64,000 nucleotides of DNA from Mycolicibacterium sp. YH-1 (GTDB taxonomy: Bacteria > Actinomycetota > Actinomycetes > Mycobacteriales > Mycobacteriaceae): positions 310,001-374,000 of the forward strand of contig NZ_CP092915.1 of the NCBI RefSeq assembly GCF_022557175.1. Direction: 5' to 3'. Positions 41,595-43,007 of this stretch are shown in pieces (position 1 is the stretch's first letter; every line of letters begins with the position of its first letter). Position numbers and translations under genes: made by a program. The notes under the pieces were generated by a model. That model saw only the letters and a program-made list of their open reading frames with translations, did no database searches and was not told the DNA's origin.

Positions 41595-43007
41595 CTAAAG
41601 CAGTTCGAGGCGGCGCGCCATGTCGGAGGCGAAGACGCCGTGTGGATCAGCCTTGCGGCGCACCGCGATCCATTCATCAACGCGCGGGTACATCTTGTGA
41701 AAGTTCTCTGCACTGACTCGGGAGTCCTTGGCGGTGTAGATGCGTCCGCCGAACTCCATGACGCGAGTGTCGAGTTCGTTGAGGAACTCGTTGACACCCG
41801 GCTTGTTCGGGAAGTCCATCGCGACGTTCCAGCCCTTCATGGGGAAGCTCAGCGGTGCTGGATTGCCCGGGCCGAACAGTTTGAACACGTTCAGAGCCGA
41901 GTAATGGCCGCGTGTCTGGATCCAGCGGATGATGGCCTTGAACTCGTCGAGGGCATCCGGTGGCACCAGGAACTGGTGTTGCGCGAAACCCGCTGGCCCA
42001 TAGGCGTATTGCCATCCGGTGGTGATGTCGAGCATATGGTAGAACTGCGTCAGGTTGACGATCTTGTTCTGGTAGTTGCCGCTCATCCGGTAGAAGGCCT
42101 CGCCGACCAGGCTGAGCGAGAGCTTGTTCATGACGCTGACCGGGAACAGGTTCGGCACGGCGGGTAGCTGCGGCGCGGCGAACTGCAGCGGATTCTTCGC
42201 CAGCTTCGCAGGCAACTGATCCAGTCTGGCCAGGCTGCCCCGGCTGACCGCCGCCCGGCCCAATTTCGGGGGCGGGCTGATCAGGTCGAACCAGGCGCTG
42301 GAGTAGGTGTAGTTGTCCTCGCTGCCGTCCTGATGCACGGCGATGGTCTCGTCCAGGTCCGCGGTGGCTACACCGTCGGCGATGAAATAGGCCGTCTCGG
42401 TGCGGGTCATGGCGATTCGGGCGCGAATCACGATGCCGGTCAGCCCGTTGCCGCCGACGGTGGCCCAGAAGAGCTCACTGTCCGGGCCATCGGGGGTGAG
42501 GGTGCGGACGTCGCCGTCGGCCATCAACAGGTCCATCGACAGCACATGGTTGCCGAAGCTGCCTGCGCTGTGGTGGTTCTTGCCGTGGATATCGGAGCCG
42601 ATGGCGCCGCCGATGGTCACCTGCCGGGTGCCCGGCAGCACCGGGACCCACAAACCGAAGGGCAGCGCGGCCTTCATCAGCTGGTCGAGGCTGACGCCGC
42701 CGTCCACATCGGCGATCGCGGTGTCGGCAGAGATGGAGTGCACGGTGTTCAGTGCGGTCATGTCGACGACGATGCCGCCGCCGTTGCAGGAGTGGTCGCC
42801 GTAGGAGCGCCCGAGTCCGCGCGCGATGATGCCGCGGTGGAAGTGTGACGGATCGCTGGCGGAGGCGTCCGCGACCCGTCGGACGGCGGCGGCGATGACC
42901 TCGACGTCGGGGGTCGACAGCACGTGGGCCACGCTCGGCGCGGTACGACCGAAACCGGTCAGGGCACGCGACGTCAGCGGCAGGGTCCTGCCAGATTCGG
43001 TAGACAT
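41595..43007 (-). CDS. dprE1: Decaprenylphosphoryl-beta-D-ribose 2'-oxidase DprE1 with Ala at the benzothiazinone-target cysteine
   Basis: This 470-residue FAD-dependent oxidase oxidises decaprenyl-phosphoryl-ribose to the 2-keto form. FAD-binding elements are GLGRSYGDHSCNGG (residues ~65-80) and PGTRQVTIGGAIGSDIHGK. The C-terminal half has VFKLFGPGNPAPLSFP and ends with the family tail VFASDMARRLELL. The active-site segment reads GWNVAMDFPNKPG. In M. tuberculosis it is GWNICVDFP, where Cys387 is attacked covalently by benzothiazinones. The residue here is Ala396, encoded GCG (complement of 41820-41822). The enzyme should be active, since the cysteine is not needed for catalysis. Confidence 0.96.
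   Translation of the reverse strand: MSTESGRTLPLTSRALTGFGRTAPSVAHVLSTPDVEVIAAAVRRVADASASDPSHFHRGIIARGLGRSYGDHSCNGGGIVVDMTALNTVHSISADTAIADVDGGVSLDQLMKAALPFGLWVPVLPGTRQVTIGGAIGSDIHGKNHHSAGSFGNHVLSMDLLMADGDVRTLTPDGPDSELFWATVGGNGLTGIVIRARIAMTRTETAYFIADGVATADLDETIAVHQDGSEDNYTYSSAWFDLISPPPKLGRAAVSRGSLARLDQLPAKLAKNPLQFAAPQLPAVPNLFPVSVMNKLSLSLVGEAFYRMSGNYQNKIVNLTQFYHMLDITTGWQYAYGPAGFAQHQFLVPPDALDEFKAIIRWIQTRGHYSALNVFKLFGPGNPAPLSFPMKGWNVAMDFPNKPGVNEFLNELDTRVMEFGGRIYTAKDSRVSAENFHKMYPRVDEWIAVRRKADPHGVFASDMARRLELL

What the first reader, a model, noticed from the sequence alone, without database searches (positions are those of the whole stretch)
41819..41824. DprE1 has alanine instead of the benzothiazinone-target cysteine
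The active-site segment reads GWNVAMDFP, with a GCG codon (residue 396) where M. tuberculosis has Cys387. Benzothiazinones bind that cysteine covalently, and replacement by Ala, Ser or Gly gives high resistance. Natural alanine is known in M. avium and M. aurum. The rest of the enzyme looks intact, so intrinsic resistance to covalent DprE1 inhibitors is predicted while non-covalent inhibitors might still act.
Basis: partly seen in the sequence, partly recalled or inferred. Interest (0 to 1): 0.72.

Follow-up and report, generated by a model that had tools for sequence, protein, structure and literature searches.

The report
Horizontally swapped alanine-type DprE1 gene
This mycobacterium carries a version of an essential cell-wall enzyme that lacks the cysteine attacked by benzothiazinone drugs, and the gene, with its partner, appears to have been exchanged between distant mycobacteria rather than mutated in place.

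Summary
The window encodes an intact, single-copy DprE1 (41595-43007, minus) with Ala396 (codon at 41820-41822) where M. tuberculosis has Cys387. Insensitivity to covalent benzothiazinones is a sound prediction: BTZ043 and PBTZ169 MICs exceed 100 ug/ml in M. avium and M. abscessus. But Ala is not rare: 155 of 396 genus genomes, against 236 Cys. Nor does it look like an in-place change. With sites 387/388 masked, 62 of 64 Ala rows form one divergent dprE1 clade mixing Mycobacteroides, slow growers and rapid growers. The neighbouring aftA+embC genes need 17 Ala/Cys changes instead of 2. The window's nearest relatives by those genes are Cys-type, with dprE1 only 67% identical. Informative sites switch sides near 43.0 and 40.8 kb, the ends of the dprE1-dprE2 pair (the left end is not visible with one comparator). 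So this lineage most likely received a dprE1-dprE2 tract by homologous recombination. The Ala class differs at about 33 further positions, so non-covalent inhibitors cannot be assumed to keep potency.

The parts
41595..43007 (-). dprE1, decaprenylphosphoryl-beta-D-ribose 2'-oxidase, Ala-type, 470 aa
   Evidence: NF053785 775.6 bits, cut-off 500; best solved relatives are DprE1 chains
41820..41822 (-). Ala396 codon (GCG), equivalent to Cys387 of M. tuberculosis DprE1
41808..41834 (-). active-site motif GWNVAMDFP
40798..41577 (-). dprE2, 2'-ulose reductase; appears to have moved with dprE1
   Evidence: NF053786 415.2 bits, cut-off 250; informative sites
40800..43000 (-). inferred recombination tract (about 2.2 kb; ends approximate, from 150-bp bins)
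   Evidence: sites shared with same-type L156 against flank-nearest L180: dprE1 267:83, dprE2 106:54; outside gtrA 24:65, aftA 133:236, embC 246:388. Against L195 the left end is not visible (gtrA 61:50)
43035..43505 (-). GtrA-family membrane protein, left flank
   Evidence: PF04138 69.1 bits, cut-off 26.1
38905..40791 (-). aftA-type arabinofuranosyltransferase, right flank
   Evidence: PF12250 536.3 and PF12249 253.1 bits
35651..38908 (-). embC-type arabinosyltransferase, right flank (which Emb it is rests on gene order and recall)
   Evidence: PF04602, PF14896, PF17689

Best explanation
The window's dprE1 belongs to a divergent Ala-type DprE1 class. That class has spread between mycobacterial lineages by homologous replacement at its native locus, here together with dprE2. 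The enzyme oxidises decaprenylphosphoryl-ribose as usual (inferred from family and conserved residues). Because the thiol is missing, the nitroso form of a benzothiazinone cannot form the covalent adduct, so the strain should be intrinsically insensitive to that class (inferred). Other pocket-region positions differ too, so potency of non-covalent inhibitors may be lowered in a compound-specific way (inferred). Shown: residue, single copy, tree conflict, switch of informative sites. Inferred: catalysis, phenotype, direction and mechanism of transfer.
For: dprE1 tree of 130 rows with 387/388 masked: 62 of 64 Ala rows in one clade, SH-aLRT 100, 2 changes of state. aftA+embC tree on the same 130 rows: 17 changes, 14 forced by starred branches. 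Per-gene Ala/Cys changes on 116 of those rows: gtrA 23, dprE1 1, dprE2 11, aftA 16, embC 16. AU tests: 14 slow growers as one clade in dprE1 (60 rows) rejected, p 4e-7; 22 Ala rows as one clade in embC (49 rows) rejected, p 1e-125. The window's flank sisters L180 and L195 are Cys-type, with identities to the window of dprE1 67/67, aftA 80/82, embC 85/84%. M. chelonae: dprE1 89, dprE2 86 but aftA 62, embC 70%. Switch of informative sites. Phenotypes of others: BTZ043/PBTZ169 MIC >100 ug/ml in M. avium and M. abscessus (PMC3958311, passages); PBTZ169 ineffective in vitro on M. chelonae (Ala in L012) and MIC <0.016 ug/ml on M. gordonae (Cys in L040) (PMC10106926, passages).
Against: No phenotype of this strain is known. 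PBTZ169 reduced M. abscessus and M. chelonae loads in mice despite poor in vitro activity (MIC >32 ug/ml against most NTM strains; PMC10106926, passages), so the residue may not settle outcome in a host. The species tree is only a proxy from two adjacent genes. With L195 the left breakpoint is not visible (gtrA 61:50). dprE2 does not follow dprE1 everywhere (named slow growers L020-L026, L028: dprE2 75-78%). AU groups were named after trees had been seen. Donor not identified.
Confidence: 0.85

Rival explanations
1. Vertical descent with an in-place Cys to Ala change in the window's own lineage (the reading implied by the first reader).
For: The motif differs from M. tuberculosis at only a few residues.
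Against: The gene is 84-89% identical to Ala-type genes of many other rapid growers and Mycobacteroides but 67% to its flank sisters; about 33 further positions separate the classes; the Ala (GCN) and Cys (TGC, TGT) codons seen differ at two bases or more.
Confidence: 0.03
2. Ancient duplication of dprE1 with later loss of one copy or the other in each lineage.
For: Would also give a deep split that cuts across species.
Against: No motif-bearing genome carries both types: 155 Ala plus 192 Cys genomes equal the 347 with any motif. Two genomes show two motifs, both Cys: one is an identical 3026-bp stretch on two contigs, the other two short contigs sharing 149 bp at their ends. Rooted on Nocardiaceae, the Ala clade nests inside mycobacterial Cys types. 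It would need many parallel losses.
Confidence: 0.06
3. Convergence: shared selection on the pocket makes unrelated dprE1 genes look alike.
For: Ala also arose separately elsewhere: at least four changes are forced on a chosen 72-row tree that includes other genera.
Against: Nucleotide identity to same-type genes is raised along most of dprE1 and dprE2, not only at pocket codons, and falls beyond dprE2.
Confidence: 0.04
4. Assembly error or contamination.
For: None found.
Against: Single 7.27-Mb contig, completeness 100, contamination 1.31; normal gene order; Ala seen in 155 genomes.
Confidence: 0.01

Closest known systems
Natural Ala DprE1 of M. avium and the M. abscessus complex
   Same: Ala at the Cys387 position (PMC3206020, PMC9765218); relatives of theirs (M. 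vulneris, M. scrofulaceum, M. chelonae, M. franklinii) fall in the same dprE1 clade as the window. M. avium and M. abscessus themselves were not among the named loci
   Different: Known as a polymorphism explaining benzothiazinone inactivity; no listing I saw reports a separate, horizontally exchanged allele class
Laboratory M. tuberculosis Cys387Ser/Gly mutants
   Same: Loss of the thiol gives benzothiazinone resistance (PMC3206020, passage)
   Different: Single substitutions in a Cys-type enzyme; in M. smegmatis the Ala and Ser enzymes have lower kcat/Km (8.5 and 5.2 against 26.8) and Gly negligible activity (PMC8776228, passages). The natural class carries many further differences
Mosaic drug-target genes formed by recombination (for example penicillin-binding proteins of Neisseria and pneumococci; recalled, not searched)
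   Same: Essential target gene replaced by homologous recombination
   Different: Here between lineages across a whole genus, with a partner gene, and with no known drug selection

Membership tests
DprE1 (decaprenylphosphoryl-beta-D-ribose 2'-oxidase) | Passes the curated family model | tested here: met
   NF053785 775.6 bits, cut-off 500
DprE1 (decaprenylphosphoryl-beta-D-ribose 2'-oxidase) | Active-site residues kept (Tyr60, Gly117, His132, Gly133, Lys134, Ser228, Trp230, Tyr314, Gln334, Gln336, Lys367, Phe369, Asn385, Lys418; list recalled) | tested here: met
   identical in 28 of 28 Ala-class rows (window included), 75 of 75 mycobacterial Cys-type and 27 of 27 Nocardiaceae-group rows
DprE1 (decaprenylphosphoryl-beta-D-ribose 2'-oxidase) | Next to dprE2 in the arabinan cluster | tested here: met
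   dprE2 NF053786 415.2 bits directly downstream, then AftA and Emb domains
DprE1 (decaprenylphosphoryl-beta-D-ribose 2'-oxidase) | Enzyme activity | not testable with these tools
   no assay
Natural benzothiazinone-indifferent DprE1 | No Cys at position 387 | tested here: met
   Ala396
Natural benzothiazinone-indifferent DprE1 | No second Cys-bearing copy | tested here: met
   one close match in the genome
Natural benzothiazinone-indifferent DprE1 | High MIC of covalent inhibitors | not testable with these tools
   strain unnamed, no phenotype
Horizontally replaced allele | Gene tree conflicts with flanking-gene tree | tested here: met
Horizontally replaced allele | Tract ends visible in the window lineage | tested here: met
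   both ends with L180 as flank comparator; only the right end with L195
Horizontally replaced allele | Identified donor | tested here: inconclusive
   nearest dprE1 rows are 88-89% identical

The most novel reading that the evidence does not exclude
The dprE1-dprE2 pair is a repeatedly exchanged target cassette in mycobacteria, kept at about 40% of sampled genomes because natural compounds that act at the DprE1 pocket favour the remodelled Ala-type enzyme. On this reading the human drug class met a resistance allele that already existed. A hint only: avermectins, first isolated from a soil Streptomyces, inhibit M. smegmatis DprE1, and selamectin is docked against Arg325 and residue 275 (PMC8776228, passages). 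Arg325 is Asn or Tyr in 28 of 28 Ala-class rows against Arg in 75 of 75 Cys rows, and residue 275 is Val in 23 of 28. Against it: the same paper found no carry-over from enzyme to whole-cell effect, selamectin IC50 was little changed by the Ala enzyme itself (3.9 against 2.6 uM), and the five other Ala-class rows have Ile or Phe at 275.
Probability: 0.15. Interest if true: 0.8.

Novelty: new variant of a known kind. Interest (0 to 1): 0.5.

Why it matters
DprE1 inhibitors are in clinical trials. If about 40% of mycobacterial species carry a distinct, exchangeable DprE1 class, susceptibility should be predicted from the whole allele class, not from one residue, and the unexplained loss of potency of non-covalent inhibitors in M. 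abscessus becomes testable with purified enzymes. It also suggests that an essential two-gene wall-synthesis step can be replaced across deep lineages.

Tried and rejected
Family-wide count: one search used a pattern whose last two letters excluded proline; it missed the window itself (0 of 251) and is void. One search repeats it correctly: 23 of 251, of which 12 of 21 in the genus and 11 of 230 outside it (three other genera); a fixed motif, so a lower bound. Two-motif genomes: both resolved into an assembly repeat or a split contig. Ser at the site: 1 of 396 genomes (L139, 57% identical, so its status as true DprE1 is unsure). Strict pairing of Ala with Met at 388: not absolute (Ala-Met 72, Ala-Leu 8, Ala-Phe 5, Ala-Val 3 of 88 Ala motifs, some loci fetched twice). 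Structure prediction was not run: closely related solved DprE1 structures exist and the tool returns no distances. Papers PMC6201125 and PMC3128490 are not held and were not read.

Rows dropped: searches used 130 rows that had dprE1 of at least 400 aa, aftA 400 and embC 700; L002-L009 were left out (three fetched again at greater length, the rest too short), as were all but six of the 28 Nocardiaceae-group loci. One search used 116 of the 130 (those with all five genes; FastTree). One search used 49 of 60 rows. One search left out L031. One search left out L092, L139 and rows under 400 aa; its 34 positions are those whose residue distributions overlap by under 0.10, a threshold of mine. One search used a chosen sample of 72 rows. 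Searches fetched 80 of the 347 motif-bearing genomes (40 Ala, 40 Cys), picked from the listed rows for long contigs.

Full report
WHAT IS THERE. The ORF at 41595-43007 on the minus strand encodes a 470-aa DprE1 (NCBIfam equivalog 775.6 bits, cut-off 500). Its motif is GWNVAMDFP, residues 392-400, with Ala396 coded GCG at plus 41820-41822. In the alignment to solved M. tuberculosis DprE1 the residue stands opposite Cys387. dprE2 follows at 40798-41577 (NF053786, 415.2 bits), then genes with AftA and Emb arabinosyltransferase domains; a GtrA-family gene lies upstream. The genome holds no second DprE1: two further matches at E <= 1e-5 are 27 and 32% identical and part-length.

HOW COMMON IS IT. 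Among 396 genomes of the genus, 347 carry the DNA motif: 155 with Ala and 192 with Cys, which together make up the 347, so no motif-bearing genome has both. Of the 49 without the motif, 46 gave a protein match (24 of 25, 22 of 24): 44 Cys, one Ser in a divergent 57% homologue, one too short to reach the site; three gave none. Totals: Ala 155, Cys 236, Ser 1, undetermined 4. In the wider family 11 of 230 genomes outside the genus show an Ala motif (one search is void). The finding is therefore a common natural state.

THE ALA TYPE IS A SEPARATE LINEAGE. Among the 80 named loci (26 Ala, 54 Cys), identity to the window is bimodal: 23 Ala loci lie at 80-89% and all 54 Cys loci at 68-75%; three Ala loci fall in the lower range (L031 70, L034 72, L041 73%). 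Among 80 unnamed loci the ranges are 78-89% for 40 Ala and 66-73% for 40 Cys. In the 130-row dprE1 tree with the two trait residues masked, 62 of 64 Ala rows form one clade (SH-aLRT 100) holding Mycobacteroides chelonae and franklinii, M. scrofulaceum, M. europaeum, M. vulneris, M. rhodesiae, M. llatzerense and the window. The two others (L034, L041) sit in the sister clade with six Cys rows, among them M. heraklionensis. The tree of aftA+embC for the same rows instead follows taxonomy as I know it (Mycobacteroides basal, slow growers together; recalled) and needs 17 Ala/Cys changes, 14 of them forced by starred branches. Holding 14 slow growers together in dprE1 is rejected (p 4e-7), and holding 22 Ala rows together in embC is rejected (p 1e-125); both groups were named after trees had been seen. 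Gene by gene on 116 rows the numbers of changes are gtrA 23, dprE1 1, dprE2 11, aftA 16, embC 16: the label is tied to dprE1, partly to dprE2, and much less to the neighbours.

THE WINDOW ITSELF. By flanking genes its nearest rows are L180 (G304) and L195 (G196), both Cys-type. Their dprE1 is 67% identical to the window's while aftA and embC are 80-85%. M. chelonae shows the reverse: dprE1 89, dprE2 86, aftA 62, embC 70%. Counting sites where L156 (same dprE1 type) and L180 differ, the window sides with L156 in dprE1 (267:83) and dprE2 (106:54) and with L180 in gtrA (24:65), aftA (133:236) and embC (246:388). The switch falls in the bins at about 43.0 and 40.8 kb. L010 against L180 gives the same picture. 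Against L195 the left end is not visible (L156: gtrA 61:50; L145: gtrA 63:43), which I cannot explain beyond a possible second exchange in that region. Six Cys-type loci have a dprE2 at least 86% identical to the window's (L050, L070, L184, L185, L186, L205), so dprE1 and dprE2 also recombine apart. Conversely the named slow growers of the Ala clade have dprE2 at only 75-78%.

WHAT ELSE DIFFERS. Thirty-four positions, the Ala site included, separate 28 Ala-class from 75 mycobacterial Cys-type rows with residue distributions overlapping by under 0.10. Thirty-one lie between M. tuberculosis positions 204 and 396, the region I recall as the substrate-binding domain. Examples, Cys type to Ala class: Pro316 to Met, Glu322 to Gly, Arg325 to Asn/Tyr, Tyr335 to His, Asp353 to Trp, Cys387 to Ala (each 75 or 74 of 75 against 28 of 28), and Val388 (73 of 75) to Met (25) or Leu (3). 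Recalled active-site residues are unchanged. Published docking places Arg325 beside selamectin (PMC8776228, passages) and beside a TCA1-derived inhibitor (PMC8154581, passage); both are docking models.

MECHANISM. Benzothiazinones are reduced by DprE1 to a nitroso form that bonds to Cys387 (PMC3958311, passage). Without the thiol that adduct cannot form. BTZ043 and PBTZ169 MICs exceed 100 ug/ml for M. avium, M. abscessus, M. bolletii and M. massiliense (same paper, Table 2 passage). In a second panel PBTZ169 was ineffective in vitro on M. chelonae and active at <0.016 ug/ml on M. gordonae (PMC10106926, passages); the named loci here are Ala and Cys respectively. In M. smegmatis enzyme, changing only this Cys to Ala lowers kcat/Km from 26.8 to 8.5 (PMC8776228, Table 3 passage). 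This fits, but does not prove, that the other Ala-class differences accommodate the Ala. Both non-covalent inhibitors tested in M. abscessus were inactive or far weaker (PMC9765218), the cause being left open between target binding, uptake and metabolism; the class-wide differences make target binding a testable candidate, provided M. abscessus, which was not among my named loci, shares the class of M. chelonae and M. franklinii.

AGAINST. PBTZ169 lowered M. abscessus and M. chelonae counts in mice although in vitro MICs were above 32 ug/ml for most strains (PMC10106926, passages). The strain's phenotype is unknown. The species tree rests on two adjacent genes.

LITERATURE. Searches and 64 of an open-licence library listed no title or abstract start describing horizontal exchange of dprE1; most full texts were not read, and most subscription papers are missing. 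The Ala polymorphism itself is well known.

VERDICT. Observation right, main drug inference sound, but the alanine belongs to a widespread and recombining DprE1 class, which is the more interesting result.

Noticed in passing
L037:11441-14113 (also L049, L054, L056): In M. brisbanense a FUR-family gene (143 aa) and a peroxidase-family gene (734 aa; KatG-like by recall) stand between dprE1 and dprE2. In L049, L054 and L056 dprE2 also starts about 3.4-4.8 kb after dprE1; what lies there was not read.
   Followed up: partly
L050, L070, L184, L185, L186, L205: Cys-type dprE1 (66-73% to window) beside a dprE2 that is 86-92% identical to the window's: reciprocal shuffling of the pair.
   Followed up: partly
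L223-L233, L031: Ala at the same site outside the genus: Ala-Met in two genera and L031, Ala-Val or Ala-Phe in another, on separate branches, so Ala seems to have arisen more than once.
   Followed up: partly
L139:1471-2895: A DprE1-like protein, 57% identical, with Ser at the site and GFMLSLDFP in place of the GWN motif; the only match at E <= 1e-100 in its genome, which is 90% complete.
   Followed up: partly
literature on M. aurum: One paper says M. aurum has Ser and is naturally benzothiazinone-resistant (PMC3206020); another reports BTZ043 MIC 0.008 uM for M. aurum DSM 43999 (PMC8192043).
   Followed up: partly
L020:10001-11383: M. helveticum dprE1 is the deepest and longest branch of the main Ala clade.
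   Followed up: no
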